Of a DNA stretch of 31,358 nucleotides, positions 557 to 18,334 are shown piece after piece (position 1 is the first letter of the stretch; each line of letters begins with the position of its first letter). The DNA lies in IMG/VR virus record IMGVR_UViG_3300036859_000347, positions 1 to 31,358 of that record; one strand, 5' to 3'. This DNA is from a virus. The notes under the pieces were generated by a model. The model was not told the origin of the DNA. It saw only the letters and a program-made list of their open reading frames with translations, and made no database searches. Made by a program: the position numbers and the translations under genes.

Positions 557-1026
557 TCATGCCTCCCGATAGCGGAGTTGTCCGACGCCAGCCGCCCGGC
601 CAGCATCGGGTGGGCAGCGATCAGCGCCACGGTGGCGTCGTCGAGGCCGGCCAGGAGCGCGACGACCGCTTCGGCCTGATCGCTGCGGACCGCGTCGGCG
701 TGCGCGGCTCGGTACGCGGCCACCGTCTTTTCCTCGACGGCGTGCAGCTCGGCCACGTCGTGCACAGTCGCCGCCTTCAGGAGGTCGCCGTGCGGGTCGC
801 CCCAGGACACGGACAGGTCGTAGGCCGGTACCGTCTCCCGTCCGGGCGGCGGGTTCGGCAGCGTCGTTGGCACCCACTCGGCGTCCATCCAGTTCGAGCC
901 GACCGGGAACTCGAGCAGCGACTTCGCGGCGATGATGAGCTGGTCCAGCTGCTCGGGTTCCTGCTCGCCGATGAGGAACAGATGTACGGCACCGGGGACG
1001 CGGACGACCAGGTGTGCGGTTTCCAT
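553..1026 (-). CDS. Hypothetical tail-region protein
   Basis: 157 aa, ATG start overlapping the upstream stop by one base (TGATG). The N-terminal half is mixed beta with a Pro-rich turn (LPNPPPGRE). The C-terminal half is Ala-rich and predicted helical: a helix pair near residues 90-120, then LLAGLDDATVALIAAHPMLA. No catalytic motif, signal peptide or transmembrane segment is visible. It is co-transcribed with tail appendage genes and is probably a virion or tail-assembly component, but I do not recognise the family. Confidence 0.7.
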   Translation of the reverse strand: METAHLVVRVPGAVHLFLIGEQEPEQLDQLIIAAKSLLEFPVGSNWMDAEWVPTTLPNPPPGRETVPAYDLSVSWGDPHGDLLKAATVHDVAELHAVEEKTVAAYRAAHADAVRSDQAEAVVALLAGLDDATVALIAAHPMLAGRLASDNSAIGRHE

Positions 1027-1565
1027 CAGGCGCTCACCAGGAAGATCGACGCGTTGGGCTGCTGCCCGGCGGACACGGCGGTTAGTAAAGCCCCGCCGGT
1101 GTCCTGGAACCCTTGCAGCGTGAGGAAATCTCCCGCGTTGAGGAAGATCAGCTTCCCGCGGGCCGGGATCTCGCACGTGCCCGTTGCGGTGGCCGCGACG
1201 ATCGCCTCGTTGCCGTTCAACGCGGTGCCGTTGACGGCCCAGCGCGCGCCGCGCCGGTTCGTTACCGACGCCGCGTACCCAACCCCACCGCCGACCCGAT
1301 ACCACCCCGGATACTGCGCGGTGAACCGTGCGGTGTTGACGCTGGTGTCGTGCTGGGGGAAGTTTCCGACGTTCGCATCAAGATCCTCAACGTCGAAGGT
1401 CAGGTCGACCCACACCCCGGACGAGGCCAGGTTCTGGGCCACCGTCTGGCGGAGCTCGGCGCGCGGCGGCGCAAGCAGGAACGTCACCGCGGCCACGACT
1501 GCGGACAGCGTCGACGACGGCAGGGTCCCGGTGACGATAGGCGGCAGCACGGGGATCGTCGGCAT
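1026..1565 (-). CDS. C1q/TNF-like jelly-roll tail protein, candidate receptor-binding
   Basis: 179 aa. The first 45 residues form a helical, hydrophobic leader (MPTIPVLPP, then SSTLSAVVAAVTFLL) likely to anchor or trimerise it. Residues about 55-179 carry strands in C1q/TNF-like order: HDTSVNTARFTAQYPGWYRV, then GRY/VNG-type strands (GARWAVNGTALNG), then LIFLNAGDFLTLQGFQDTGG, then a final strand NASIFLVSA. The GDFLTLQGFQDTG segment resembles the GDxVxLxxxQ strand typical of this fold. Such domains often form trimeric tips of tail fibres. An AAGGTGGG Shine-Dalgarno-like stretch precedes the ATG. Confidence 0.72.
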   Translation of the reverse strand: MPTIPVLPPIVTGTLPSSTLSAVVAAVTFLLAPPRAELRQTVAQNLASSGVWVDLTFDVEDLDANVGNFPQHDTSVNTARFTAQYPGWYRVGGGVGYAASVTNRRGARWAVNGTALNGNEAIVAATATGTCEIPARGKLIFLNAGDFLTLQGFQDTGGALLTAVSAGQQPNASIFLVSA

Positions 1566-1596: not shown

Positions 1597-2304
1597 TCAG
1601 AACGGCATCACGTCGGTGCCGTCCATGCGCGAGGTGTCGACCCGGAACCACGGGCCCTCCGTGCCCGGTGTGGATCCCAGCAGCGGGGCGGTGGTCCACT
1701 CGGTGACCCGACCGGTGACCGAGGAGCTGTGCGCGATCCCTTCGATCACGAGGCTTGTCGCGCCGATGGGCAGCCCGGCCGGAACGGGCAGGGTGATCGG
1801 CCCGCTAGGGGAGGGCACGACACCGGGCCCGAGGGTGACCCGGTCGCCCAGCTCGCGGTCGAGGATGCGCCACCGCTCGTCAACGGTGCGGTGCACCAGG
1901 TCGAAAGTCAGGACCGGGCAGCGCACGAGCGGGTTGGCGTAGTAGGCAATGAGGAAGTTCGCGAAGTTCTGCGCGTCGTCGACGCTCGCGGTGGTCAGCT
2001 CACCGCTGGCGGCGAAAACCCCGTAGGCGAGCTGGGAGGTGGCTGCGTCGGCGATCGCGGCTGACCCGCCGGTGCGGGAGATCTCGGCGTGGTTGATGGG
2101 CTGGTCGCTGCGCAGCTGCAGCGGCATCGACAGCCACGTCCACGGGATGATCGTCGGGTCGGGCGCGCCGCCGCCCCAGAACCAGTCGTTCACAGCAGGG
2201 GAGGATCCGCCGGGCGACAGGGCCCCGACGTTGGCGACCAGGTCGTCATCGGCCCAGTCGCCCATGCCCAGCTTGGCGCCCTTTCCGCTCGCGGTGGAGC
2301 CCAC
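1597..2304 (-). CDS. Minor tail protein, C-terminal half of a split gene
   Basis: 235 aa, GTG start a few bases after the previous stop. Residues about 95-150 (DDAQNFANFLIAYYANPLVR, then a ...RWRILDRELGDRVTLG element) match the C-terminal part of the large actinophage minor tail proteins. There a DAQ...A..LLARY.DP.LR segment is followed by ELGDRV and a final beta domain ending in an IEG.. strand. Here IEGIAHSSSV and TEWTTAPLL fit that ending. The N-terminal half of such a protein appears to be encoded separately at 3139-4560, with another tail gene between. The protein is probably part of the baseplate or tail tip. Confidence 0.72.
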   Translation of the reverse strand: MGSTASGKGAKLGMGDWADDDLVANVGALSPGGSSPAVNDWFWGGGAPDPTIIPWTWLSMPLQLRSDQPINHAEISRTGGSAAIADAATSQLAYGVFAASGELTTASVDDAQNFANFLIAYYANPLVRCPVLTFDLVHRTVDERWRILDRELGDRVTLGPGVVPSPSGPITLPVPAGLPIGATSLVIEGIAHSSSVTGRVTEWTTAPLLGSTPGTEGPWFRVDTSRMDGTDVMPF

Positions 2305-2310
2305 GAGGCG

Positions 2311-3129
2311 CTACCCCTGCCCGAAGGTGAACGAGCCGTAGACGGCGGCGGGCACACCGGTGGGGAAGTACACCAGCTGCAGCACGCTGGCATCGACGAC
2401 CGTTGGCTTGAGGAGCTGGGTGTAGCTCAGCGGGTTCGCCACCCCTGCAACGGGATTGGGTGGCAGCTCGCACACCACCCGGAAGGCGATCAGGTGTATG
2501 GCGCCGGAGACGTAGCTGGTGCCCAGGGTGATTGACTGGACGCTCTTGACGCCCACGTCACCGGACTGCAGGGCGAAGAACACGAAGGTGCCCACGGAGG
2601 CGGTGGCGGGGAAGCTCGCGAGGGTGGCGGTGCGCCCGGCGACGCCCAAGCTGTTGGTGTAGCTGACCGTTGTGTTGGTGATCGGCGCACCGTTGCCCGT
2701 GACGACGCTCGCCTCCAGAGCGAGGAACACGGCGTTGCCGTTGATGGAGGCCGACGTGTCCCGCGGTGGCCACGCCGGCGACACGATCGCCTGCGCGCCC
2801 ACGGTTGTAACGACTGGGGCGTTGCCCCACATGCGGTCGACGAGCCAGACGTTGCCGACGTTGCCGGTCTGGGTGATCCCAGCCCGCAGGATGGCGCTCG
2901 TGTTGCCAGCCACAGCGGCCGGACACGGAATCTGCCCAGCCACCGACGGCCCGGTGAAGATGCCGCCGTTGAGCCCGCCGATCGGCGCCGCGCCGGCGCC
3001 GACCAGACCGGCCGCATACCAAGGTGTGATCGGCACCTGGGCCAGGGCACCCGCCAGCGCGCCCTTGTTCCACACCACCGGGAACGGGATGATCGCGGCG
3101 GTTAGGCCGTCCATCGTGTTGAGGGGCAT
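2311..3129 (-). CDS. Putative tail protein (beta-rich, inserted in minor tail gene)
   Basis: 272 aa, ATG preceded by a clear AAGGAG Shine-Dalgarno sequence. The protein is rich in Gly, Ala, Val and Thr, with alternating beta strands throughout and no catalytic motif, signal or membrane helix. The C-terminal 100 residues (TLASFPATASVGTFVFFALQ, then SITLGTSYVSGAIHLIAFRV) look like a beta-sandwich. It lies exactly between two ORFs that together resemble one minor tail protein, and its own good ribosome site suggests independent translation. Location implies a virion tail-tip or decoration role. I do not recognise a specific family. Confidence 0.7.
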   Translation of the reverse strand: MPLNTMDGLTAAIIPFPVVWNKGALAGALAQVPITPWYAAGLVGAGAAPIGGLNGGIFTGPSVAGQIPCPAAVAGNTSAILRAGITQTGNVGNVWLVDRMWGNAPVVTTVGAQAIVSPAWPPRDTSASINGNAVFLALEASVVTGNGAPITNTTVSYTNSLGVAGRTATLASFPATASVGTFVFFALQSGDVGVKSVQSITLGTSYVSGAIHLIAFRVVCELPPNPVAGVANPLSYTQLLKPTVVDASVLQLVYFPTGVPAAVYGSFTFGQG

Positions 3130-3138
3130 GCCCGCTCC

Positions 3139-4560
3139 TTAGACGTTGAGGACCCGGACCCGGTCGTGGAAGACGTAGCGTCCGGCGCCGTCGATGAACC
3201 CGCGACCGCGCTCAGTGCCCACCGCAGCCGCCAACGCGTCGGCCGGGGTCTGGCCCGCGAGGGTGGCGATCTGCATCAGCGACACCCCGGAGTCCAGGAC
3301 CCGCTCGCCGGCGGGCACCCCGGCGTAGTCGAGGATCGTGGCGAGCCGCTGCCCGGTGAACTGCTGCTCCAGGCCGTAGAGACCAGCCTGGTACTGGGCC
3401 AGGTGTGCGGCCTGGTCGAACCGGGACGCCGGCAGCGTGTTGTAGACCTGCAGGTGGCCCACCGATCCGCCAGCGGACCCGAGGACCGTCACGACGGAGA
3501 GCTGGCCGCTGGTGCCTAAGACGCCGATCATGTTGCCGGTCACCGGGGCGCTGTCGTTGACCCACAGCTCGGCGAGGCCGCCTGGGGTGCAGTCGACCCG
3601 CACGGTGACCAGCGACCATGCGGATGTCTTCGGCACCGGCCCGACGAGGGTCGTCGTGCCTACAGAGTTCGTGATCGCCGCGGACCACCCGGTGGGCGCC
3701 CACGTGAGGTCGAGGATGCAGGTGGAGGCGTTGTCGCGGAGCACGATCTCACCCGTGACCGCGGCCCCGGCCGGCGTGTAGACCCACACCGACGTGATCC
3801 ACGTGCGGGGGTTGTTCACGGTAATCGACAGGTTGCGGTTGACCAGCCGGGTCGCGGCCACCAACGCCGGCGTCGAGTTGACCAGCGGGTCGAACTGGAC
3901 GTACTGGGTGTCGTCGCCGAGCATGCCATCGACGGCGGCGAATGACAGCAGGTTCGATGGGGCGCCTCCGGTGCTCGACGCACCGGTGTTGTACGCCTCC
4001 AGGGCCAGCGGGCCGACGAACCGGTAGCCGGAGACGGCGTACAGCGACCCGGCCGGGTCGTTGAGCGGCCACCACGCGTCAAGGAACTGCGTCGTCGTGA
4101 ACTGCGAGGCATACCAGGCGATGTAGGCGCCCAGCGTGCTGTTGAACGGCTTGGCGCGGCCGAGCCGGGTGAGCCGGTCGACCGCGGTCAGCTGCACCTC
4201 CTGGTAACCGATGGGCTGCCAGTCGTCGACGTCGGGGAACTCCAGGTACCCGGTGAACTCGGAGAACGTGCGGCTGCCATAGGTCTCCGTGTAGCGCAGC
4301 TTCTTCCCGGTGATCCAGTTCGCCCCGTACGGGCCAGTGAGCAGGCCGGGGGTGAACCGGTTGTCGGTGTTGTCGAGGACGCAGGTGAGCTGGGAGGACT
4401 GGATGGTGTCCAGCTCCGACTGGCGGCCGCGGGTGATCTGTAGCGGGGACTGCTCGGTCCGCACGTACGGGGTGAGGTCGACGTAGACGGGGAGCGGGTC
4501 GTCCGGCGCGGAGGTCGGTGCGAACTCGAGCCGGCCTGCGCCGCCGAAGGTGCCTGCCAT
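3139..4560 (-). CDS. Minor tail protein, N-terminal half with LamG-like insert
   Basis: 473 aa, ATG overlapping the tape-measure stop by one base. The N-terminus is the classic actinophage minor tail start: VYVDLTPYVR, then LQITRGRQSELDTIQSS, then LTCVLDNTDNRFTPG. Residues about 165-370 (WWPLNDPAGSLY, then WITSVWVYTPAG, GLAELWVNDS) form a concanavalin/LamG-like insert, a possible glycan-binding domain. The protein ends at GRGFIDGAGRYVFHDRVRVL, which in intact homologues is the midpoint rather than the end. The likely remainder is the ORF at 1597-2304. It follows the tape measure gene, consistent with a distal tail/baseplate protein. Confidence 0.82.
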   Translation of the reverse strand: MAGTFGGAGRLEFAPTSAPDDPLPVYVDLTPYVRTEQSPLQITRGRQSELDTIQSSQLTCVLDNTDNRFTPGLLTGPYGANWITGKKLRYTETYGSRTFSEFTGYLEFPDVDDWQPIGYQEVQLTAVDRLTRLGRAKPFNSTLGAYIAWYASQFTTTQFLDAWWPLNDPAGSLYAVSGYRFVGPLALEAYNTGASSTGGAPSNLLSFAAVDGMLGDDTQYVQFDPLVNSTPALVAATRLVNRNLSITVNNPRTWITSVWVYTPAGAAVTGEIVLRDNASTCILDLTWAPTGWSAAITNSVGTTTLVGPVPKTSAWSLVTVRVDCTPGGLAELWVNDSAPVTGNMIGVLGTSGQLSVVTVLGSAGGSVGHLQVYNTLPASRFDQAAHLAQYQAGLYGLEQQFTGQRLATILDYAGVPAGERVLDSGVSLMQIATLAGQTPADALAAAVGTERGRGFIDGAGRYVFHDRVRVLNV

Positions 4561-6869
4561 CAGATGGCCCGGGCGGACGCGGGGAACAGGTCGATCGGTG
4601 CGATGCCGGCCCGGCGCGCGTAGCGCAGCAGCTCCTTGCGCTGGGTGCGGCCGTCTTTGTCGATGACGGTCAGGTGCACGTGGATGTCACCTTCCCCACC
4701 GCCGCCGACCGAGCGGCCGCCGGCGCCGCCGACGGGGGTCGGGCGGCGGCCCATGGCGCGGATCTGGTCGTTGGACAGGATCTCCTCGCCGCCGTGGACG
4801 ACCGCCAGGCGTGGTGCGCCCTCAGGTCCGGGGACTGTGCCGCCTTCTTTGAAGCCGAGGATGTGGGCGATCCATGCGCCGGCTTTGCCGGGGGCGTTGA
4901 GGACGGCACTGATGCCGTTCTTCACGGTGTTGATCGCCCCGCCGATCTTGTCGAAGACCGGTTTGAGGATGTCCCAGGCAGCCTGGATGATCTTCTTGAT
5001 GCCTTCCCAGGCGACATGCCACCCCTCCTTGAGCAGGCCGATGGCCTTCTTGATCGGAGTGATGCCGTACTTGTCGATGAAGCTGAACACGGGCTTGATG
5101 ACGTTCTCCCAGGCCCACTTCGCCGCGTTCTTGATCGCCGCCCAGGCAATGTCCCAGCCCTTGCGCAGCATGCCGATTGCCCACATCACCGGGTGGATCC
5201 CGTAGTTGATGATGAAGTTGATGACCGGCTGGATGACGTTGTTCCACGCCCACTTCGCGATCGTCGTGATCGCGGTCCACTCGCGCTTCCACACGACCAC
5301 GAAGTCCTTGACGATCACCGAGAAGAAGCCCCACGCGAAGTCCCAGATCGCCCGCAGGACCGTGAGAACCGCCTCGATCGGGCGCAGCACCCACTGCTTG
5401 AACCAGCGGCCGATCGGCAGGATCACGTTCTGGTAGAGCCACATCACCCCGGTGTGGAAGGCCTTCACCAGCCAGTGCCAGGCGTCGACGAGCGGGTGCC
5501 ACACGTCCATGGCGATCCGCTTGATCCACGCCCACACGGTCTTCCAGTGCTTGACCAGCTCGTAGATCCCGACGACAAGCAGCGCGATCGCGGCGACGAT
5601 CGCGAGCACGATCCAGGTGATGGGGTTGGCCATGGCCGCGGCCGCGTTGGCCACCAAGGTCGCGGTGAACGCGACCATCGCGGCGACCAGGACGCCGCCG
5701 ACGACCATCGCGAGGATCTTAACGACCTCGATGTGTTTGCTCATCCAGGTCGCGGTGGCCTGGATCTTCGGGATCAGCCAGTTGCCGATCTTGACACCGA
5801 GGACCTGCGCAGCGGCGCCCAGCTCCTTGAGCTGCTGGGAGAACTGCTGCTGCTGAGCGGCCCACGCCTCGTGCGCGGTCTTCGCCCGGGACGCCTCGGT
5901 TCCCAGCGCCTTGTACTTGCTCTTGAGCCGGTCGGTCTCCTCGAGGAGGGTCAGGATCGCCCCGGAGGTCTTCCCTCCGCCGAACGCGTGCTCGATGGTC
6001 GCGTTCTGCTCGACGGCGCTCTGGCCCGATTTCTCCAGGTGGTGTTTGAGGTCCATGACCGCGGTCAGGAGGCCGTCCGGTTTGCGCAGGTCGTTGGCGA
6101 GCGACATCGACGTCAGGCCGATCGAGTGCAGCGCCTTCACCGCCGGGCCTGACGGGGCGGCCATCAGCGAGATCGTCATCCGTAGCCGGGTCGCGGCCTC
6201 GTCCGCCGGCGTGGAGTTGTCGGTGATCGTGGCCAGGGCGGCGCCGAAGTCTTTCATACCCAGGCCGGCCGACTTGAACGACGGGAGGACGCCGGTGCCG
6301 ATCGCGGCCGCCAGCTTGTCCATCTTCATGTCGCCCATGCCGACGATCGTGTTGAGGTAGTTCGTCGCGTCGGCCGCGCTCTTGACGTCCTTCATCGCCA
6401 CGCTCATCACGCCCGACATGGCGAACGTGACCGTGTCGAGGTCGGCCATGCCCATCGCGGCGAGCTTCGCCGAGGCCGCCAGGATGTCCATGGCCTCTTT
6501 GCCGCGGAAACCGGTGCTCTCGATGTGGTACAGGCCCTCGGCGAGCTTCTCCGGGCCGATCCCGACCGCCGGCGCCAGCTTGAGGACGGAGTCCTTCAGC
6601 GCGTCGACCTCAGCCTGGCTGGCGCCGGCCTGGGTGTGGACCAGCTCCATCGTCTGGTCGAAGTTGGCCGCCAGCTTGACCGACTCGTACCCGACGCCCA
6701 CGACCGCGGCGGCCAGGCCCAGCATCGCGACCTTGCCGGCGGCGGCGAGCTTCGTGGTGGCCGCCTGCAGGCCGGTCATCTCGGCCTTGGTCTCGCCCAT
6801 CGCGGCCGAGAACTTCCCGACCTCGGCAACGATCTCGGCGACGACAGGGGGCAGGAAGCCAGCGGACAT
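4560..6869 (-). CDS. Tape measure protein
   Basis: 769 aa, the second-largest protein here, located after the chaperone genes as expected. It starts MSAGFLPPVVAEIVAEVGKF, then a helical region with a GFRGKEAMDILAASAKLA segment and FAMSGVMSVA, typical of the phage-tail tape-measure (TP901-like) core. A strongly hydrophobic region follows near residues 375-435, then a Trp-rich helical stretch. Two tandem 45-residue repeats occupy residues 538-582 and 583-627. The C-terminus (GGEEILSNDQIRAMGRRP) is a conserved tape-measure ending. The protein sets tail length and is ejected into the cell envelope. The ATG at 6869 is chosen because homologous sequence begins there and the longer frame upstream overlaps the previous gene. 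Confidence 0.93.
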   Translation of the reverse strand: MSAGFLPPVVAEIVAEVGKFSAAMGETKAEMTGLQAATTKLAAAGKVAMLGLAAAVVGVGYESVKLAANFDQTMELVHTQAGASQAEVDALKDSVLKLAPAVGIGPEKLAEGLYHIESTGFRGKEAMDILAASAKLAAMGMADLDTVTFAMSGVMSVAMKDVKSAADATNYLNTIVGMGDMKMDKLAAAIGTGVLPSFKSAGLGMKDFGAALATITDNSTPADEAATRLRMTISLMAAPSGPAVKALHSIGLTSMSLANDLRKPDGLLTAVMDLKHHLEKSGQSAVEQNATIEHAFGGGKTSGAILTLLEETDRLKSKYKALGTEASRAKTAHEAWAAQQQQFSQQLKELGAAAQVLGVKIGNWLIPKIQATATWMSKHIEVVKILAMVVGGVLVAAMVAFTATLVANAAAAMANPITWIVLAIVAAIALLVVGIYELVKHWKTVWAWIKRIAMDVWHPLVDAWHWLVKAFHTGVMWLYQNVILPIGRWFKQWVLRPIEAVLTVLRAIWDFAWGFFSVIVKDFVVVWKREWTAITTIAKWAWNNVIQPVINFIINYGIHPVMWAIGMLRKGWDIAWAAIKNAAKWAWENVIKPVFSFIDKYGITPIKKAIGLLKEGWHVAWEGIKKIIQAAWDILKPVFDKIGGAINTVKNGISAVLNAPGKAGAWIAHILGFKEGGTVPGPEGAPRLAVVHGGEEILSNDQIRAMGRRPTPVGGAGGRSVGGGGEGDIHVHLTVIDKDGRTQRKELLRYARRAGIAPIDLFPASARAI
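4989..5258 (-). repeat. Tandem 45-codon repeat in tape measure gene
   Basis: Two adjacent 135-base units (5124-5258 and 4989-5123) encode AKWAWNNVIQPVINF... and AKWAWENVIKPVFSF.... The units are 26/45 identical by hand alignment, both carrying PV..F, YGI.P, GW..AW and IK positions. A weaker partial copy (QAAWDILKPVFDKIG) follows. Such modular repeats are where tape-measure length usually changes. Confidence 0.8.
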
Positions 6870-6886
6870 GGGCCGGCCCCCTGCTG

Positions 6887-7318
6887 CTACTTGAGGATCG
6901 CCTCGGTCCACGCCCGGGCGAAGATGGCCTGGATCTCGGTGAGCGTGTCGCGCAGCGCCGGATCCATGTAGGGGCGGGCCGGCAGGGTCGCCCGGCCGGT
7001 GTCGCCGCCGAGCTCCTGCACGCGCCCGTAGACCGCGGTGGGCCCGACCTGGCCCTTCCACGTGGATGCGGTGACCGCGGTCGGGCCGGTCACCGTGATC
7101 GAGCGCCGCAGGTTGCCGCTCACCAGGGCGGGCGGGTCACCTGGTAGCGACGAGGTGGGCTCGCCGAGGCGGTGCGAGGACCGCGCCAGGTTCTCCTTGG
7201 CGCGCCGCTCCAGCAGGTGCAGGGCCTTCGCGGTGGCCTGGCGGGTCGCGGCCCGCATCTGGGTGACCTTCAGGTCGCAGCCGGCCGCGAAACGCTCAAC
7301 GCCACGGAGGATGATCAC
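6887..7318 (-). CDS. HK97 gp10-like tail/neck protein
   Basis: 143 aa. The GTG start overlaps the stop of the frameshifted chaperone reading frame as GTGA, which fixes both ends. Motifs resemble the HK97 gp10 family: an N-terminal helix, then LVSGNLRRSITV (G.LR.SI), VYGRVQELGG (Y...QE.GG) and LPARPYMDPAL (aRPfl.pAl). This family normally sits between the head-tail connector and tail terminator and helps complete the tail. Here it lies between the chaperone and tape measure genes, so it may instead act as a tail component. The family call is good; the exact role is inferred. Confidence 0.75.
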   Translation of the reverse strand: MIILRGVERFAAGCDLKVTQMRAATRQATAKALHLLERRAKENLARSSHRLGEPTSSLPGDPPALVSGNLRRSITVTGPTAVTASTWKGQVGPTAVYGRVQELGGDTGRATLPARPYMDPALRDTLTEIQAIFARAWTEAILK

Positions 7319-7916
7319 GTGCTTGCCGCCTTCTCCTTCTCGGCGCGGATCTCGTCCATGATCGCGGCGAAGCCGGGCAGCCGGCGGATGTACCAGACCG
7401 GCTGCGCCTCGACCTCCGCGACGGACCACCCGTACCGTTCGGCGAAGAACCCGTAGTACGCGGTCCGCTCCCACCGCTCGTCCTCGCGGCTGATGCGCGG
7501 CCGAACCTCGGCCCAACCCGACAGGAGCGCCTTTACTCGCTGTCGGGCGGAGTAGGGCCCCCGGGCGTGTCATCGTCGGGCGGAGTGACGGCGTTGTCGC
7601 CCTCGCGCATGAGCGCGAGCACCGGCTCGACGTGGCGCTCCAGGGCGCGAAGGTCGCGCAGCTTGAGCCGCTTCCACGCCGCCGGGTTGGCCTGCGGGGT
7701 ACGCGGGTCGGCCAGGTACGGCACGCTCCACGTCCTGACGAGCAGCTCGATCGCCTTGCGGTACAGGGCGTTCGTCGTCTCGCCGGCCGAGTCCTCGGCG
7801 CGGATCTGCTTGCGCAGCTCGTGCAGGTCGTGGCCGGTCAGGTCGTCGAGGTCGCCGAACTCGACCCAGGCGTCGGCGCCCGAGGGCAGCTCGAGTCGGG
7901 GTAGCTGTGTCTCCAT
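7315..7916 (-). CDS. Tail assembly chaperone, G-T frameshift product
   Basis: A programmed -1 frameshift at 7554-7560 would join the upstream frame to a second open frame that has no plausible start of its own and ends in TGA at 7315-7317. The downstream part reads VKALLSGWAEVRPRISREDE, then WERTAYYGFFAERYGW, WYIRRLPGFAAIMDEIRAEK. This is the typical second half of actinophage tail assembly chaperones (ERYGW followed by RRLPG). The joined product would be 200 aa: 121 codons before the slip and 79 after. It binds the tape measure during tail assembly and is absent from the mature virion in the lambda gpG/gpGT model. Confidence 0.82.
7533..7916 (-). CDS. Tail assembly chaperone, unshifted (gpG-like)
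   Basis: 127 aa, starting METQLPRLELPSGADAWVEF and containing LTGHDLHELRKQIRAEDSAG and WKRLKLRDLRALERHV. The size, order (after the major tail protein, before the tape measure) and helical content fit the gpG-type chaperone. The ORF ends in a Pro/Asp-rich tail just after a slippery site, so the short form is the non-frameshifted product. A GGGAG Shine-Dalgarno sequence precedes the ATG. The 48-base gap upstream contains only this ribosome site. Confidence 0.87.
   Translation of the reverse strand: METQLPRLELPSGADAWVEFGDLDDLTGHDLHELRKQIRAEDSAGETTNALYRKAIELLVRTWSVPYLADPRTPQANPAAWKRLKLRDLRALERHVEPVLALMREGDNAVTPPDDDTPGGPTPPDSE
7554..7560 (-). promoter_or_regulatory. -1 ribosomal frameshift slippery heptamer GGGCCCT
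   Basis: On the minus strand the zero-frame reading is G GGC CCT, an exact X XXY YYZ heptamer (X=G, Y=C, Z=T). Slipping back one base moves the two tRNAs onto GGG and CCC. The new frame leads into the conserved chaperone T region. It lies near the end of the gpG-like ORF, 18 bases before its TAA stop. Confidence 0.75.
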
Positions 7917-7964: not shown

Positions 7965-8984
7965 TCAGTAGGTGGCTGCGGCCGTGTTGTTCTTGACGGT
8001 CACCTTGATCGGGGACAGACCCCCGGACGCGCCGGCGTTGGTCGAGTTCATGACGGCCTTCCAGGCGGCGTCGTACCCGACGGCCTCCTCACCGCGGTTG
8101 ATCTTCACGGTTTGGTAAGCGGCGAGCTGGCAGTCGACCTGCAGGTTGCGGTTGTTCGCCAGGGTCAACCCGTTGTCGACGACGATCTGCAGCTGCGGCT
8201 GCGTGTTGTTGATCAGGTAGAGCATCGAGTTCGACTCGTCCGCCGGGGTCGCGAACATCAGCTTGCCCTCAACATCGACCGCACCCCGGAAGATGATGTA
8301 CGGGTTCTGCGAGCCCTGCAGCGTGTACTCCGCCTTCAGCGCCCGCTTGATCGTGACCTCCCACTCGCGGACCGTCTTGACCTGGGTGCCGCCGCCGGCG
8401 ACACCGGCCAGCCCGAGCAGGGTGCGCCACGCCGCGTACGGGGTGTCCGCCGACGTGGCCGGGGTCGGCGCCGCCCCGATGACCGTCGACGGGTACGCCA
8501 GGCCCTTGCCCGAGACCATCACGAGGCTCGACTCGGCGTTGCCCTTCAGCGTCAGCTCGGACAGGCATGCGCCGGGGTAGACGCGGGCGAAGTTCGACGC
8601 CGACGGCGGCCCCTGCCAGTCCACTAGGGTGAGCGACCCGGGCTGCCCGACGCCGGAGTTCAGCAGCGACACGGCGTGCACGTTCGGGGTTGCCCCGGAG
8701 TCGGTGATGTCGCCCAGGATGTTGTTGAGCCAGAACGGGAGCGTGTCGAAGAACGCGGGGCCTTCGAAGGACCACTCGGCGATCCCGACGCCCTGGATCT
8801 CGCCGGCGAGGTTCGCCATCGACCCGCGGAAGCTGGTGTCGTCGAGCTGGGTGTACTTGTCCTCCGGCTCGAACTTGTCGACGGGGATGGTGGCCGTGAT
8901 CGGGGTGACCGCGGTGCCCTGGGTGGTCTCCTTGGCCAGGCCGATGAACTGTTTCGCGCTGGGGTAGACGACGGGGGTGGGCAT
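7965..8984 (-). CDS. Major tail (tube) protein
   Basis: 339 aa, ATG overlapping the preceding stop by one base. It starts MPTPVVYPSAKQFIGLAKET, followed by TQGTAVTPITATIPVDKFEP, a conserved opening of actinophage major tail proteins, and continues with alternating beta strands (EWSFEGPAFFDTLPFWLNN, AESSLVMVSGKGLAYP, TVREWEVTIKRALKAEYTL). The position just before the chaperone pair supports the tail-tube assignment. The C-terminus (SPIKVTVKNNTAAATY) is short, with no Ig-like extension. No membrane segment is present. Confidence 0.9.
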   Translation of the reverse strand: MPTPVVYPSAKQFIGLAKETTQGTAVTPITATIPVDKFEPEDKYTQLDDTSFRGSMANLAGEIQGVGIAEWSFEGPAFFDTLPFWLNNILGDITDSGATPNVHAVSLLNSGVGQPGSLTLVDWQGPPSASNFARVYPGACLSELTLKGNAESSLVMVSGKGLAYPSTVIGAAPTPATSADTPYAAWRTLLGLAGVAGGGTQVKTVREWEVTIKRALKAEYTLQGSQNPYIIFRGAVDVEGKLMFATPADESNSMLYLINNTQPQLQIVVDNGLTLANNRNLQVDCQLAAYQTVKINRGEEAVGYDAAWKAVMNSTNAGASGGLSPIKVTVKNNTAAATY

Positions 8985-9286
8985 CAGGCACCTTCTCCAT
9001 CACGCTGGGCGGCGGCGCGCCTGGTGCGCTTCGCCGGCGCGGGTTCGGGCTGCGGCTCGGCCTGGTCCTCGGGTTCCTCGGGGGGCGCGTCGGGCGGGCG
9101 GTACCCGCGCAGCGCCTCGGCGTAGTTCGCCGCCTCCGTTGCCGCGAGCTGGTCGACGGGCCCGTCATCGACCGCCGGCAGCGCGGCACCGGTGCCGTCG
9201 CCGACCAGCTCGTGCTCCGTGCCGTCGGCCGGCACCTCGACGCCCTCGGCCGGCTCGCCCAGTCCGGGGCTCACGCGCTCGTCCAT
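8984..9286 (-). CDS. Hypothetical acidic Pro-rich protein
   Basis: 100 aa, ATG preceded by an AGGGGA ribosome site. The first two thirds are acidic (Asp/Glu with Gly and Val). The middle has a short helix (ATEAANYAEALRGYRPP), and the end alternates acidic Pro-rich and basic stretches (EPQPEPAPAKRTRRAAAQR). It is probably largely disordered. It sits between tail terminator and major tail protein, where small accessory proteins are common. No family is recognised. Confidence 0.65.
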   Translation of the reverse strand: MDERVSPGLGEPAEGVEVPADGTEHELVGDGTGAALPAVDDGPVDQLAATEAANYAEALRGYRPPDAPPEEPEDQAEPQPEPAPAKRTRRAAAQRDGEGA

Positions 9287-9300
9287 GTTCCCCTGCTTCC

Positions 9301-9834
9301 TTATCCGACCTCGTAGGCGTGCGCCTCGAAGCTGATGACCATGTACGCCTTGGTGGTGCCGTCGACCTGGCCACCCTGCTCGATGTGCCAGGTGATGCGG
9401 CCGTCGCCCTCGCCGACCTGGAAGTTGCCGGTCTCGATCCCGCCGGTACCCAGGGTCGGGTCGGTGCGGATCTTCGCCACGATCGCGTCGCGTAGCGCGT
9501 AGACCGCGTCCTGGCAGTCCTCGACGTACAGGGCCTCGCTCCAAAAAAAGCAGTGGAGCTCCAGGTCGTAGGACACCTTCCGGCGGCCCTGGACCGCGGG
9601 CAGGGCCGCGCGCGGGCCGTCGACACCATCGGGGTTCTGCACGACGATGACGCACCCGGTGGCCGTACCGGCGGGCATGCCCTGGGTGTACTCGGCGAAG
9701 TCCTCCCGGCCGGCCCAGGCCCGGCGGACCACGCCGACGCCGGCGACGGTCGGCGTCCGGTAGGTGTGTAGGGCCGCTACGTACGGGCCGCCGAAGAAGG
9801 TGCAGACGGCGTCGACGACCGCGGCCGCGGTCAC
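9301..9834 (-). CDS. Tail terminator-like protein
   Basis: 177 aa, GTG start in a GTGA overlap with the head-tail adaptor gene. Mixed alpha/beta: an N-terminal helix (AAAVVDAVCTFFGGPYVAAL), then strands with RKVSYDLELHCFFWSEAL, a helix (CQDAVYALRDAIVAKIR), and a final strand segment AYMVISFEAHAYEVG. The strand-helix pattern, a size around 150-180 aa and location between the connector and major tail protein fit the gpU/tail terminator family that caps the tube at the head end. The call is from layout and order; no signature residue decides it. Confidence 0.65.
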   Translation of the reverse strand: MTAAAVVDAVCTFFGGPYVAALHTYRTPTVAGVGVVRRAWAGREDFAEYTQGMPAGTATGCVIVVQNPDGVDGPRAALPAVQGRRKVSYDLELHCFFWSEALYVEDCQDAVYALRDAIVAKIRTDPTLGTGGIETGNFQVGEGDGRITWHIEQGGQVDGTTKAYMVISFEAHAYEVG

Positions 9835-10736
9835 CGCACCGCCCGGTAGGGCCGTAGCAGCCGCATCGCCTTGGCCTGCCACGGGGTGGCGTCCTTCGGG
9901 TTCTTCCCGATGGAGGACTTCACCCGGGCGCCAGGCCAGTTCGAGGAGGAGGTGCCGTAGCGCTGCAGGCCGTCGATGGCGAGGTAGATGGTGGCCAGGT
10001 GCAGGTCCGCGCCGAAGCCGGTGACGCCGGCGCCGATGGGGTGGGCGTTGGCCAGGCCGGCCACGAGGGGGATGGCGGCGGGGGTGAACGGGGTGGTGGC
10101 CTGCCCGGCCCAGGACGGGGCGACGACCACGGACTCCTCCTTGCCGGGCTCCCAGATCCGCAGGGTGTCGCCGGCGTAGATGCCGGTGGGGTTCGACACG
10201 GTGATGGACATAGCGCCCCCGCCCGGCGCGGCTGTGAGGACGGCGTTGGCGTACCCGGCAACGTAGGAACACGTCGTATAAAGCTCCACAGAGGACGGTG
10301 GGGCACCGAACTGCAGGCTGCCCGACCACGACCCGGACGCCCCGGCCAGCTCGACGATGATCTGGCGGCCGTCCTCGATCTGGCACAACGGGTTCGCGAT
10401 CGAGGTGGCCTGCCCGAGCTGGCTGGCGTACGAGTACGCCAGGACGGTGCGCACCGGCGCGTGGCAGGGGTAGAGGAACAGGCGGCCGCGGTTGTCGGCC
10501 CAGTTGCGTCGGGAGTCGACCTGCACGTGAGCCTGGATCGGCTGGTCGCAGATCGACTCCGCGTCCTCGGAGGCCATCAGCAGGATGTTGAGCAGCTCGG
10601 CGTCCTGGTCGCCGGCGACGGTCGATCCAGAGCGCAGGTTCTGCACGTCGATGAACGTGGGGTGGGCCTTGAACGCGGGGACGGTCACGAACGGGATGGC
10701 CAAGATGAGGTCCTGGGCGATGGGCGCGACCGTCAT
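9831..10736 (-). CDS. Head-tail adaptor/connector protein
   Basis: 301 aa. The N-terminal 65 residues (FIDVQNLRSG, then AELLNILLMASEDAESICDQ) form the small helical bundle found in gp6/gp15-like head-to-tail connectors that dock under the portal. The remainder is an unusually long beta-rich region (VSNPTGIYAGDTLRIWEPGK resembles a surface-associated strand pair) ending in helices (LHLATIYLAIDGLQRYG) and a basic tail. The gene follows the capsid block and precedes the tail terminator. A GCGAGGTAG ribosome site lies before the ATG. Confidence 0.72.
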   Translation of the reverse strand: MTVAPIAQDLILAIPFVTVPAFKAHPTFIDVQNLRSGSTVAGDQDAELLNILLMASEDAESICDQPIQAHVQVDSRRNWADNRGRLFLYPCHAPVRTVLAYSYASQLGQATSIANPLCQIEDGRQIIVELAGASGSWSGSLQFGAPPSSVELYTTCSYVAGYANAVLTAAPGGGAMSITVSNPTGIYAGDTLRIWEPGKEESVVVAPSWAGQATTPFTPAAIPLVAGLANAHPIGAGVTGFGADLHLATIYLAIDGLQRYGTSSSNWPGARVKSSIGKNPKDATPWQAKAMRLLRPYRAVR

Positions 10737-10748
10737 CGTCTACCTCGC

Positions 10749-11111
10749 TCAGGCCTTGGCGGCGGCGGCTTTCGTCGCCTTGGCGGGGGTGCTCTTCTTC
10801 GCGGTGCCCGGATCGGTGTCAGCGCCGGTGGTGTCGGCATCCGGGACGACCGCGGTGGTGGTCTCGTCGGTGCGGGCGGCCAGGGCCGCGCGCAGCGTGT
10901 CCTCGTCGACGCCAGCGAGCAGGTCGGCCAGCTGGTCGGCCACCGCCGGTGCCGGCTCCGGCGCGGCGCCCGGGTCGAACACCCAGGAGCCGTGTTCGCA
11001 CGCCCATGAGGTGGTGCTCGGGTCGAGCGGGTTCAGGCCGCAGGTGGTGCACAGGGCGCTCGCGTGGGCCGGGGCGGGGCCGAGCTGCGGGGGCGGGGTC
11101 TTGGTCGTCAT
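10749..11111 (-). CDS. Hypothetical protein with Cys motif and Lys/Ala-rich tail
   Basis: 120 aa, ATG in an ATGA overlap with the upstream gene. Residues about 20-45 contain CTTCGLNPLDP followed by CEHGSWVF, a likely zinc-binding knuckle. A helix (VADQLADLLAGVDEDTLRAA) follows, then a Thr/Asp-rich stretch and a histone-like tail (AKKSTPAKATKAAAAKA). It lies between capsid and connector genes. The basic tail could contact DNA or capsid, but this is inference. Confidence 0.68.
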   Translation of the reverse strand: MTTKTPPPQLGPAPAHASALCTTCGLNPLDPSTTSWACEHGSWVFDPGAAPEPAPAVADQLADLLAGVDEDTLRAALAARTDETTTAVVPDADTTGADTDPGTAKKSTPAKATKAAAAKA

Positions 11112-14564: not shown

Positions 14565-14771
14565 TTAGGTGGTGACCTCGCGGGTCAGGACGTACCCGTT
14601 GCTCCAGCTGCGAAGCGCCTCGTCCGCGCGCTCCACGCCGAGAGTCTCACGCATGCGCTCGACCGCGCTGCGCGCACGGCCAGTCTCGTAGACCGGGTCC
14701 GTGCCCTCGTCGAGCGTGACCACGTCGAGCACCGTGTCCGGTGCGTCGGCGTGCGCATACTCGATGATCAC
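14565..14771 (-). CDS. Small acidic protein coupled to portal-MuF-kinase gene
   Basis: 68 aa, ATG in an ATGA overlap with the stop of the 1188-aa fusion gene, so the two are translationally coupled. It starts MIIEYAHADAPDTVLDVVTL, then has a helix (RARSAVERMRETLG) and RADEALRSWSNGYVLTREV. There is no zinc, membrane or DNA-binding motif. It is not a recognised head protein family. Its place directly after an effector-like C-terminal kinase domain is the place where partner or immunity proteins of MuF-type toxins are expected, but nothing in the sequence proves that. Confidence 0.75.
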   Translation of the reverse strand: MIIEYAHADAPDTVLDVVTLDEGTDPVYETGRARSAVERMRETLGVERADEALRSWSNGYVLTREVTT

Positions 14772-17700
14772 TCGATGATTCTAACGGTTCCGGTGGCATG
14801 ATCGCCGATCGCGCGCAGCCGCTCGATCACATCGTCGAGCCAGCCGCCTCGGTGCAGCGCGTGGAACGCCGGTCGTAGCGACTCCAGACGCCGCAGAAGC
14901 ACCACGATGTCCTCGGCGGTGAGTGGGTTGTCCATCCACACCATGGCGCGGCCGGGGCGGTGAACGAACGGCGGCCGGCCCCACCTCGGCGGGACCGCCG
15001 GGTCTGACCACGCCATGAATGCGAACCCGTGGTCGATGACCTGGATACGGCCGTCCAGGACCAGGAAGTTGCCCAGATGCCGGTCCTGGTTGTTGATCAG
15101 CAGGTCGAGGAGCCGCATACGGGTGCCCTCGACGGTCTTGAGCAGCGCCAGGTCCTCCTCGTAGTAGGCCAGCTCGTCGGCGAGCTGCCCGTCCATGAAG
15201 GCCATCAGGATCTCGTTGTCGGCGACCCGGTAGACGGCGGGGGCCCGTAGTCCGATGGTCCGGGCGACCAGCGGCGCAAGCACCTCGGCGTCCTGCTGGT
15301 GGGCTGCGTTGGTGTCCGCGTCGAAGTCGTGGGTGATCTTCCGGACGAGGCGGGTGCCGTCCTGTGTGGTGACCCGGGATACGTCTCCGATGCTGCCGCC
15401 ACCCAGCCGGATCTCCTCCGCTACGCCCTCGGCGTACGCGGCCTCGATCCGGGCGACCTCGGCCTCGAACGCTGCCAGGTAGTCCTCCTCCGCGGCCGCG
15501 GCCGCCTCCTCGTCGCCGAGGATCTCCTGCGCGGTGCGGGTAACGGTCGCCCCGAGGTCCTCCTGCCCCACCAGCGCGGCCAGGTCGGTGAGGCTGTAGC
15601 CCTCGGCCATGGCCTCCGACACCGACTGCAGCGCCGGGTAGAGCGAGCACCGGCACAGCGGGTGGCCCGGTGGTGCGTCGTCGCCGGAGGGGAACGGGTT
15701 GGCGAGTAGGACGGCACCGGTGTCCTGGTTGATGTTGCACACTGAGCACACCCGCTGGTCCGCCGCTGTGGCCCATTCCTTCGCGGCGATCCCGTTGCGC
15801 CCGTAGCGGAGCAGCGTCGCCGAGGACACCGCACGGGTGGTCTCGGTGACCGCGACCCGGTAAGCCCAGCGGGGGTCTGCGTTGATGGCACGCAACGCTG
15901 CGGCGATCTTGGCTGGTGGGTCGCCTGCCTCGAGTCCGGCGATGAGGGCGCCGGCGAGGGCGTCCAACCGCGCCACCATGATCGAGTCGGCGATGGTGTC
16001 GCCGGTGTCGAGCAGCTCCAGCAGACCGTCGAGCAGCCCCTCGCGTTCGAGAATCTCCCGTGCGGCCTCCAGGTCGCCGGGCACCCAGGTACCCCAGTCG
16101 GCGCCCAGCGTCACCAGGTCCGGCTGCTGCGCCGCCTTGACGACCATCCCGTGGTGGGCCAGGACAGCACGCGACGAGATAGCCCCGACGACGAACCCGT
16201 CGGTCCACAGTCCGTGCAGGGCCGGCCGGAACGCCTTGGCGTAGTCATGGCCCGCCAGGGTGCGCGCAACCGCCTTGGCGCCGCCGCGCTTCCATGCCGT
16301 GGTGGCGTCAGCGACCAGCCTCCGCGCGGAGACGAGCCCAGTCGAAGCCGCCAGGAGGATCGGCGCCCAGTGCTCGGCCACCGCCAGGTCGCGTTCCCAG
16401 CCCGGCCAGTGCCGCACTTTTGGGGCCGTGACCGGGTCACCGCCTTCGGCCTTGGCGAGGAACTCGGCGCCGTCCAGCGCGATCCCGGCGGCGGCTGCCT
16501 GCGCCTTGGTGATGGTCTCGAACCGGAACGGGCGCCCGCCCGGCTTGCCGGCACGTTTGGTCGCCCACCGCCGGTAGGCGACCAGCTCGGCCTTGACGGC
16601 GTCCGGGTCCGGGCCGGCCGCGGCGCCCGGCTTCGCGGGCGGTGCGGGCTGGCCCGGTTTGGCCGGGTCGGTGGAGCCCGGCGACCCCTCAGCGCCGGGC
16701 TCCGCCTCGCTGGGGTCATCGGACCCGATCGGCACACCCATCGCCGGGCTGATCATCTCGCCCGGCTTCGCCAGCTCGCTCGACCCTTCGATGAACACGA
16801 TGCCGCGCTGGGTGACCAGCATCGGCATGTCGGCCTCGGCGAAGGGGTAGCGGGGCAGGCCGGTGCGGTCCCGGTCCTCGTTCAAGGTCATCCGCGCGCT
16901 GCCGATGCGCCGGTTCGCGACCTCGTCGGCGGCGTCCTCGTCCTCGGACTCCAGGCCGAGGATGCGGAACTCCAGCTCAGCAGGGGCGTTCAGGTAGGTG
17001 CGCATCATTTGGGTGCATAGGGCCTGCAGGCGGCGCAGCGTGGGCTGCGTGGCCTTGCGGTCCTGCACGTCGGCCTGGCCCTCGTGCCACCCGGTCGACC
17101 CGAGGCCACCGGTCTCGGTGAACCCCAGCTCGGCGATCGTGGTGTCGAAGTGCCCGGCCACGAGCTTGATTAGGTGCAGGTCGTAGTCGGGCCGGTAGCG
17201 CTCCCCGAGGTCGGTGCGGGAGTCGTCCGGTGTCATCCCGTACGGCAGCAGCCGGAACCGCATCCGGGCCGCGGAGTTGCCGGCGTAGAAGTCGTTGAAC
17301 TGGCGCTCGTACGCGGCGAGCTGCTGCGGCGACCACTCGGCCTGGCCCTCGCCGGCGAGCAGCCACCCGGCGGGCATCACACCGTCGGTGTACTCCGACT
17401 TGAGCCAGTCCATGCGCCGCAGGTACAGGTCGCCGTCGGCGAGGGCCTGCTCGACCGCGGAGAACCCGTACGGTGTCCATGACCGTACATTGTGGACCTT
17501 GTATACGAGGCGGTCCGCCGGGTAGCCACCGGGCACCAGGCCGTTGTCCGGGTCCTGCTCGCCGTCGGCGGTGAACTCACCACGGGGGAACCCGTACAGG
17601 ATCTGCTGGTAGGCCGCGTTCGGCGGGAACGGGCGGAACCCGTCGGCGTCGAGGAGCGGTTTGATCGTGGTCCCGTCGAGGACCTCGAACCCGAACAGCT

Positions 17701-18334
17701 TCCCGTCGCGGCGCAGCCGGGGGTAGACCGCGATCGCGTCGAGGACGAAGTACTCCTCCAGCACCTTCGAGGCCCAGGCGATGAAGTCGTGCCCGTTGCG
17801 CGGGTCGGGCTGCTCCCAGAAGTCCACGAGGCGCCCGATGTGCGGGTCGACGCGCTCGCGCATGGCCTTCTCGATGTCGGAGCGGGCCGAGCCGGGGTCC
17901 TGGCGTTGGGCGCGTTCGACGGCCTTGGCGGAGATGACGACATCCCAGTCGAGGGTCGCGACCTCCGCCTTGCGGATCTCGATGCACCGCCGGAACAGGG
18001 TGATCATGTCGGCGGCGTCGCGGAGGACCTTCCACGGCACGACCCGGTCGCCGAAGCCGGGCAGGTTGAACGTGACCGGGTACTCGTAGGCGCGGGGTTC
18101 GGGGCGGCCGGTGTCGGGGCGCAGCGGGTTGATCGGGGCCGGCAGGAGCGGCACGCCGGGTCCGAACGGGACCTGCGGGTCCAGGCGTGGCAGGGGCACG
18201 GCGGCCTGGCCGCCGTTGACGTTCTGGGTGGCGCGCAGGATCGCTAGGACCTGCGCGTCGGTCCAGGTGGACCCGCGCGACGCCGGGCTGGTCCCGGCGG
18301 CCTTGTTGAGGGTGCGGCTACGACGCCGTGACAT
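14768..18334 (-). CDS. Portal-MuF fusion with C-terminal kinase-like domain
   Basis: 1188 aa. Residues about 85-520 are an HK97-type portal (TFNLPGFGDRVVPWKVLRD, then GFTETGGLGSTGWHEGQAD). A Pro/Gly linker spans about 540-580. Residues about 590-900 are a MuF head-morphogenesis domain ending in C863xxC866 ... H891 ... C894xC896 (PPGHPLCRCSLYP). After a coiled Ala/Glu segment, residues 974-1188 look like a lipid-kinase/HipA-like kinase: glycine loop LGGGSIGDV (977-985), Lys K999 in LVRKITHDF, hinge ILMAFMDG, catalytic NNQDRHLGN (D1084, N1089) and metal-binding IDHG (D1101). All key residues are present. Portal-MuF fusions are known in actinophages; the kinase suggests an injected effector. The start has a GGGGG ribosome site. 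Confidence 0.9.
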   Translation of the reverse strand: MSRRRSRTLNKAAGTSPASRGSTWTDAQVLAILRATQNVNGGQAAVPLPRLDPQVPFGPGVPLLPAPINPLRPDTGRPEPRAYEYPVTFNLPGFGDRVVPWKVLRDAADMITLFRRCIEIRKAEVATLDWDVVISAKAVERAQRQDPGSARSDIEKAMRERVDPHIGRLVDFWEQPDPRNGHDFIAWASKVLEEYFVLDAIAVYPRLRRDGKLFGFEVLDGTTIKPLLDADGFRPFPPNAAYQQILYGFPRGEFTADGEQDPDNGLVPGGYPADRLVYKVHNVRSWTPYGFSAVEQALADGDLYLRRMDWLKSEYTDGVMPAGWLLAGEGQAEWSPQQLAAYERQFNDFYAGNSAARMRFRLLPYGMTPDDSRTDLGERYRPDYDLHLIKLVAGHFDTTIAELGFTETGGLGSTGWHEGQADVQDRKATQPTLRRLQALCTQMMRTYLNAPAELEFRILGLESEDEDAADEVANRRIGSARMTLNEDRDRTGLPRYPFAEADMPMLVTQRGIVFIEGSSELAKPGEMISPAMGVPIGSDDPSEAEPGAEGSPGSTDPAKPGQPAPPAKPGAAAGPDPDAVKAELVAYRRWATKRAGKPGGRPFRFETITKAQAAAAGIALDGAEFLAKAEGGDPVTAPKVRHWPGWERDLAVAEHWAPILLAASTGLVSARRLVADATTAWKRGGAKAVARTLAGHDYAKAFRPALHGLWTDGFVVGAISSRAVLAHHGMVVKAAQQPDLVTLGADWGTWVPGDLEAAREILEREGLLDGLLELLDTGDTIADSIMVARLDALAGALIAGLEAGDPPAKIAAALRAINADPRWAYRVAVTETTRAVSSATLLRYGRNGIAAKEWATAADQRVCSVCNINQDTGAVLLANPFPSGDDAPPGHPLCRCSLYPALQSVSEAMAEGYSLTDLAALVGQEDLGATVTRTAQEILGDEEAAAAAEEDYLAAFEAEVARIEAAYAEGVAEEIRLGGGSIGDVSRVTTQDGTRLVRKITHDFDADTNAAHQQDAEVLAPLVARTIGLRAPAVYRVADNEILMAFMDGQLADELAYYEEDLALLKTVEGTRMRLLDLLINNQDRHLGNFLVLDGRIQVIDHGFAFMAWSDPAVPPRWGRPPFVHRPGRAMVWMDNPLTAEDIVVLLRRLESLRPAFHALHRGGWLDDVIERLRAIGDHATGTVRIIE

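What the first reader, a model, noticed from the sequence alone, without database searches (positions are those of the whole stretch)
1597..4560. Minor tail protein apparently split by an inserted tail gene
The ORF at 3139-4560 ends at the GAGRYVFHDR segment that is mid-protein in related minor tail proteins. The missing second half (DAQ..A..L.AYY..PLVR, ELGDRV) occurs in a separate ORF at 1597-2304, with a beta-rich gene with its own good ribosome site between them. The two halves would have to reassemble in the tail tip.
Basis: partly seen in the sequence, partly recalled or inferred. Interest (0 to 1): 0.5.

Follow-up and report, generated by a model that had tools for sequence, protein, structure and literature searches.

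The report
Phage tail hub in two pieces
In a group of uncultivated phages the gene for the central hub of the tail is cut in two at one fixed place by another virion-type gene, and the two halves are kept as separate proteins that most likely fit together again in the tail tip.

Summary
ORF A (4560-3139, minus strand) and ORF C (2304-1597) are consecutive parts of one tail protein: a profile built only from unsplit relatives matches A at 4-448 and C at 459-604. Micromonospora phage pMLP1 has the unsplit 639-aa protein, whose predicted structure has the T4 gp27/Mu gp44/VgrG hub fold with an inserted LamG-like domain. The cut lies inside the hub, after an R..RYN motif. ORF B (3129-2311), predicted jelly-roll-like, fills it. 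Thirteen further IMG/VR contigs share order and cut, so it is no fresh break or error. A's stop codon and the relative frames vary among phages, which excludes readthrough. The C tree supports one origin, with pMLP1-type hubs as sister (97/88); the A tree is less clear. B relatives stand alone in other phages and prophages. C has gained a start of about 45 aa. Most likely A, B and C are made separately and A and C re-form the hub; reassembly is inferred, not shown. It is a new variant of phage 'genes in pieces'.

The parts
3139..4560 (-). ORF A, N-terminal part of the tail hub (473 aa), including the LamG-like insertion
   Evidence: intact-hub profile 4-448, E 1.3e-55; 31.9% to pMLP1 over 95% of A; phrog_5313
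3376..4089 (-). approximate LamG/concanavalin-like domain inside A
   Evidence: model of the unsplit relative aligns to such domains over its residues 153-385; placed on A by alignment; ends approximate
3142..3162 (-). last residues of A (RVRVLNV), equivalent to the R..RYN motif of unsplit hubs: the cut site
   Evidence: alignments; the split relatives end at the same place
3135..3140 (-). likely ribosome-binding site AAGGAG of B, overlapping A's stop codon
   Evidence: sequence
2311..3129 (-). ORF B, predicted jelly-roll-like virion-type protein (272 aa) inserted between the hub halves
   Evidence: AlphaFold2 pLDDT 91.6, pTM 0.90; family found at 15 viral and 17 genomic loci
1597..2304 (-). 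ORF C, C-terminal part of the tail hub (235 aa), GTG start
   Evidence: intact-hub profile 459-604, E 2.3e-16; phrog_5313; pMLP1
2155..2304 (-). N-terminal extension of C (about 45-50 aa, M..ASGKG...DWADDDL...NDWFWGG), without counterpart in the unsplit hubs shown in the alignment
   Evidence: alignment
4560..6848 (-). context: tape measure protein upstream of A (start not settled), whose stop overlaps A's start by one base
   Evidence: phrog_28 E 1.8e-39; sequence
1026..1565 (-). context: ORF D, virion structural protein downstream of C; a relative also follows the unsplit hub in pMLP1
   Evidence: phrog_13989 E 1.5e-5; L001:6903-7463

Best explanation
A free-standing virion-type gene (B) entered a gp27-type tail hub gene, most likely once, in an ancestor of these phages, just behind the R..RYN motif. 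The hub has since been made as two proteins: A (start of the hub, LamG-like domain, the part up to the motif) and C (the rest). A, B and C lie closely packed and are probably translated one after the other by coupled starts. A and C associate without a covalent bond to rebuild the hub at the tail end, next to the tape measure. C's new N-terminal extension probably replaces the lost peptide link or docks C onto A or B. B is a virion protein that probably sits on the tail tip. Shown: homology of A and C to consecutive parts of one protein, the fixed cut, its conservation, unsplit relatives, no constant frame that would allow joint translation. Inferred: reassembly, coupling, the role of the extension, the place of B in the particle.
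For: Consecutive matches of A and C to an unsplit-only profile. Unsplit 639-aa pMLP1 protein. The predicted unsplit hub (pLDDT 78.8, pTM 0.80) aligns to solved hubs across residues 5-615: Z 19.9 to 3d37, 18.3 to VgrG1 (4mtk), 18.2 to Mu gp44 (1wru), 18.1 to T4 gp27 (1k28_D). The same order and cut in 13 other contigs. A's stop is TAA in 1, TAG in 5 and TGA in 8 of 14, and the frame of C relative to A takes all three values. No Rfam family reached its threshold. C tree: 13 split rows one clade 97/88, pMLP1-type hubs sister 99/98. A and C divergences correlate over 12 loci (Mantel r 0.40, p 0.0035). No hub split at this site without B was seen among the loci examined.
Against: No protein or particle data. 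The A-C pair itself was not folded; only an unsplit relative was modelled, and Foldseek alone gives low TM-scores for its hub matches (0.2-0.3 by query length). In the A tree the three pMLP1-type hubs fall inside the split group (94/88 with L017 and L019), which would mean a re-fusion; one split clade is not rejected (p-AU 0.285). B's divergence does not follow A or C (Mantel A-B r 0.14, p 0.20; B-C r 0.00, p 0.47), so B seems to have been exchanged, and a single insertion of B itself is less certain (L087's B lies outside the main clade; one clade not rejected, p-AU 0.187).
Confidence: 0.83

Rival explanations
1. A and C are joined after all, by stop-codon readthrough, frameshifting, ribosome bypass, an intron or protein trans-splicing.
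For: In the window A, B and C happen to share one frame.
Against: A's stop codon differs between phages and the relative frame of C takes all three values. In 12 of 14 loci B starts within 15 nt of A's stop or overlaps it, leaving no room for the 5' part of a self-splicing intron; no Rfam family passed its threshold, the one match (E 0.16, 26 bits against a cut-off of 50) being a human lncRNA. No intein-like stretch was noticed by eye; none was searched for.
Confidence: 0.03
2. A alone is a working hub and C has become a separate accessory protein with another job.
For: C is its own gene with a new N-terminal extension.
Against: The cut runs through the hub fold: both parts are needed to cover residues 5-615 that align to solved hubs. 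C keeps the hub's conserved stretches and A and C divergences correlate.
Confidence: 0.1
3. The split was ancestral to this clade and pMLP1-type phages re-fused the gene after losing B.
For: In the A tree the pMLP1 group lies inside the split group.
Against: In the C tree it lies outside (97/88); the more distant hubs resolved are unsplit; pMLP1 keeps no trace of C's extension.
Confidence: 0.12
4. Assembly or sequencing error in the window.
For: None found.
Against: Same structure in 13 other contigs with different IMG dataset numbers.
Confidence: 0.005

Closest known systems
Phage genes in pieces made by homing endonucleases (nrdA/mobE of Aeromonas phage Aeh1; mobA in the topoisomerase gene of T4; split gene 43 of Aeromonas phage 25), PMC2988022, passages read
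   Same: An inserted gene cuts one coding region into two; the products must reassemble. According to that review split NrdA of Aeh1 is fully functional, and 43A and 43B of phage 25 co-purify with polymerase activity
   Different: There the intruder is a homing endonuclease and the host gene an enzyme (for gene 43 the review leaves open what made the split). Here the intruder looks like a virion protein, the host gene is a tail hub, and the state is shared by 14 diverse contigs
gp27-type tail hubs (T4 gp27, Mu gp44, MuSo2 43-kDa protein, VgrG)
   Same: Predicted fold of the unsplit relative (Z 18-20); gene position next to the tape measure gene in the window
   Different: Single chains in the solved examples listed; here two, with a LamG-like domain inserted in the first part
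pMLP1-type hub of Micromonospora phages (L049, L050, L083)
   Same: Closest unsplit relatives in the trees; in pMLP1 a relative of D follows as well
   Different: Not split, no B found within the loci read, no N-terminal extension before the C part
Cement/decoration jelly rolls of phage heads (Pam1 7eel_H, KHP40 7dou)
   Same: Among the best structural neighbours of B (Z 4.7 and 4.3)
   Different: Scores are in the range of common arrangements; B is larger and has no convincing sequence match in the PDB

Membership tests
gp27/gp44/VgrG-type tail hub | hub fold | tested here: met
   model of the unsplit relative aligns to 3d37, 4mtk, 1wru and 1k28_D over 302-321 residues, Z 18-20; A and C cover consecutive parts of that family; the A+C pair itself was not folded
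gp27/gp44/VgrG-type tail hub | encoded in the tail gene cluster, here next to the tape measure gene | tested here: met
   tape measure immediately upstream
gp27/gp44/VgrG-type tail hub | trimer closing the tail tube | not testable with these tools
   needs particles
genes in pieces by an inserted gene | unsplit relatives exist and the insert lies at the cut | tested here: met
   pMLP1 and 62 of 78 viral loci unsplit; B at the cut in 14 of 14 split contigs found (some were found through B itself)
genes in pieces by an inserted gene | the two products reassemble into a working protein | not testable with these tools
   needs co-purification or particles
homing-endonuclease genes in pieces (T4-type phages) | insert is a homing endonuclease | tested here: not met
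   B is nearly all beta with no Pfam match and no significant PHROG match
phage head decoration/cement jelly roll (for B) | shared fold | tested here: inconclusive
   Z 4.7 at best

The most novel reading that the evidence does not exclude
The intruder has been domesticated: B is a fixed part of a three-protein hub (A, B and C in equal numbers), held by C's new N-terminal extension, so that inserting one virion gene into another created a new, exchangeable arm of the tail tip.
Probability: 0.3. Interest if true: 0.7.

Novelty: new variant of a known kind. Interest (0 to 1): 0.52.

Why it matters
Tail hubs close the tail tube and carry the tip. A hub built from two separate chains, with a virion-type gene lodged in the cut and kept over deep divergence, would show that even this core part can be broken and re-used. 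It gives a testable case of how gene insertion creates new particle architecture, and A and C would be a natural split-protein pair.

Tried and rejected
Readthrough: the shared frame in the window looked suggestive but is not kept in relatives. Intron: nothing above threshold in Rfam. B by sequence: no PHROG or Pfam match in the window protein and only weak ones (best E 0.077) in its relatives; best PDB sequence match E 0.86. B by fold: 1455 Foldseek matches up to E 10, none at E 0.001 or below; best Z 4.7, so no family is assigned. pMLP1 in papers: none held.

Papers: searches aimed at split tail hubs or split tail structural genes gave nothing relevant in the listings; two searches were wider searches, of which only PMC2988022 was opened (passages). 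In PMC5513430, PMC7302621 and PMC5559632 only passages on 'split' and 'minor tail' were read; none of these passages describes a split hub gene, though the Gordonia paper notes lysis genes within the minor tail genes. Absence from print is claimed only for these searches.

A first pairwise-identity script was superseded by one on multiple alignments; both show weak A-B and B-C correlation.

Rows left out: L012 (A cut by the contig end) from the A tree and from the correlation; L167 (found last) from all trees and the correlation; rows over 90% identical to another from the A and C trees. One search kept the best 80 of 183 relatives; of the 78 new ones 12 are cut by a contig end and 3 (L092, L106, L144) have no C part in the same ORF, and some contigs are near copies. 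Of 30 loci from the class search (each about 3-4 kb), 17 show both parts in one frame (L065 and L082 are the same gene; L069 only at E 0.3); in 13 the C part was not found, several being cut at the locus end.

Full report
WHAT IS THERE. The window is an IMG/VR virus record of 31,358 bases with a siphovirus-type late region on the minus strand: terminase, a long portal/minor-head ORF, an ORF with a weak match to a maturation protease, tail tube, tail completion protein, tape measure. Behind the tape measure lie A (4560-3139), B (3129-2311), C (2304-1597) and D (1565-1026). A's start overlaps the tape measure stop. B starts 9 nt after A's stop with AAGGAG upstream. C's GTG lies 6 nt behind B's stop.

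A AND C ARE ONE PROTEIN IN TWO PIECES. Both match phrog_5313, at 461-777 and 819-911. Micromonospora phage pMLP1 carries both in one 639-aa ORF. A profile of six unsplit hubs, containing no split sequence, matches the window at 4-448 (A, E 1.3e-55) and 459-604 (C, E 2.3e-16). A ends at the equivalent of an R..RYN motif of the unsplit hubs nearest to it; in the more distant hubs the motif is weaker.

WHAT THE PROTEIN IS. The unsplit pMLP1-type hub was modelled with 25 rows (pLDDT 78.8, pTM 0.80). In the second-look aligner it matches solved tail hubs across residues 5-615: phi812 baseplate (9eug, Z 22.7), 3d37 (19.9), Mu baseplate 9ki1 (18.7), VgrG1 4mtk (18.3), Mu gp44 1wru (18.2), T4 gp27 1k28_D (18.1). 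Foldseek itself ranks 3d37 and the lambda tail tip among its best hits (E 1.3e-8 to 2.6e-8) but with low TM-scores. Residues 153-385 separately match LamG/concanavalin-like domains (Z about 18). The cut falls after residue 462, between helix 457-462 and strand 465-470, inside the aligned hub. From memory of the gp27 structure (recalled, not tested) this is where the chain passes between hub domains, so that one domain would be shared by A and C.

THE SPLIT IS CONSERVED. B searches in viral contigs gave 15 loci: 11 have A before and C behind B, one of them with A cut by the contig end (L012), and 4 lack A and C. Searches with C returned only A-B-C loci (2, 7 and 9 loci; checked). A search with unsplit hubs found one more split locus, L087, and the last C search added L167. 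With the window that makes 14 contigs with B in the cut; the A end was read in each. A's stop is TAA in 1, TAG in 5 and TGA in 8; the frame of C relative to A is 0 in 3, +1 in 5 and +2 in 6. So no common frame links A and C. B starts within 15 nt behind A's stop, or overlaps it (L015, L016, where the only nearby start is a GTG), in 12 of 14. The exceptions are L007 (136 nt, with a 45-aa ORF read by eye) and L019 (564 nt, with an ORF on the other strand). B-C gaps run from -4 to 6 nt; for L167 the exact C start was not settled. Over the 12 loci with all three proteins complete, mean identity is 34% for A, 58% for B and 41% for C.

UNSPLIT RELATIVES. Of 78 new viral loci among the best 80 of 183 found with unsplit hubs as query, 62 have both parts in one ORF, 12 are cut by a contig end, 1 is split with B (L087) and 3 have no C part in the same ORF. 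In 394 genomes of the class of a Mycobacterium MAG, 28 have an A match. Of the 30 loci returned, 17 show both parts in one frame, and none shows a separate C ORF or a B gene within its 3-4 kb. In 396 genomes of the phylum, 8 have a C match, in open frames of 436-1257 aa; their A part was not checked. No split hub was seen in these genome samples.

ORIGIN. In the C tree the 13 split rows form one clade (97/88), with the pMLP1 type as sister (99/98). In the A tree split and pMLP1-type hubs together form a clade (100/100), but pMLP1 lies inside it; one split clade is not rejected (p-AU 0.285). In the B tree 12 of 13 split-site B proteins form a clade (100/97) with L087's B outside; one clade is not rejected (p-AU 0.187). 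Divergence of A and C correlates (Mantel r 0.40, p 0.0035); A-B (r 0.14, p 0.20) and B-C (r 0.00, p 0.47) do not. I read this as one split of the hub, with the halves evolving together and B sometimes exchanged.

WHAT B IS. B is a confident, nearly all-beta model (pLDDT 91.6), roughly a jelly roll. Its best neighbours are phage cement proteins and viral capsid jelly rolls, at Z below 5, too weak to assign a family. B-like genes occur in phage and bacterial contigs from several phyla, sometimes two or three in a row. Of ten proteins that I picked from upstream of such genes, six match head-annotated families phrog_240 or phrog_3758; ten others tested, mostly downstream, gave one tape measure, one family of unknown function and eight without a match. 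In L041 B lies next to a phrog_240 gene in what looks like a head cluster (other neighbours judged by eye). L037 has an unsplit hub and, about 2.8 kb downstream, a phrog_240 protein followed by B. This fits a virion protein that moves between sites.

MECHANISM. Most likely A, B and C are made in a row by coupled starts, and A and C fold together into the hub. C's N-terminal extension (about 45 aa, varying) occurs in the 13 split C proteins aligned, with a GKG-like start and an NDW/NDY-like pattern recognisable in most, and has no counterpart in the 17 unsplit hubs printed in that alignment. It is the best candidate for a docking piece. B probably ends up on the tail tip. These four statements on function are inference.

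COMPARISON AND NOVELTY. Phage genes in pieces are known where homing endonucleases have landed in nrdA or the topoisomerase gene, and split gene 43 is a similar case; for two of these the review reports working reassembly (PMC2988022, passages read). The present case works like those but with a virion-type intruder, a structural host gene and long conservation. My paper searches found no such case. I rate it a new variant of a known kind.

Noticed in passing
L106:6806-8671 and 8617-10857: A second hub in two overlapping ORFs, cut at another place (within the LamG-like region) and without B in the locus; the first ORF carries an extra stretch. Could be a frameshift or an independent split.
   Followed up: partly
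L028:6005-8430; L034:6083-8510; L041:6512-8284; L042:5743-7573: B-family genes in tandem, two or three copies in a row.
   Followed up: partly
L037:2206-3978 and 6812-7621: Actinobacterial MAG contig with an unsplit hub and a free B gene downstream, next to a phrog_240 gene.
   Followed up: yes
L025:3453-4262 (MW202795.1, podovirus ctEqG8): A B-family ORF for which the deposited record shows no feature, three genes behind the major capsid gene.
   Followed up: partly
L019:6433-6948 and L007:5861-5998: Extra ORFs between A and B: one on the opposite strand beginning like a secreted or membrane protein, one of 45 aa overlapping A's stop. The cut may attract further cargo.
   Followed up: no
L005:5998-7134: The C protein of this phage carries an extra stretch of about 140 aa.
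   Followed up: no
window 14768-18334 (minus strand): A 1188-aa ORF matching a portal family and, in its later part, minor head/head morphogenesis families: an apparent fusion.
   Followed up: no
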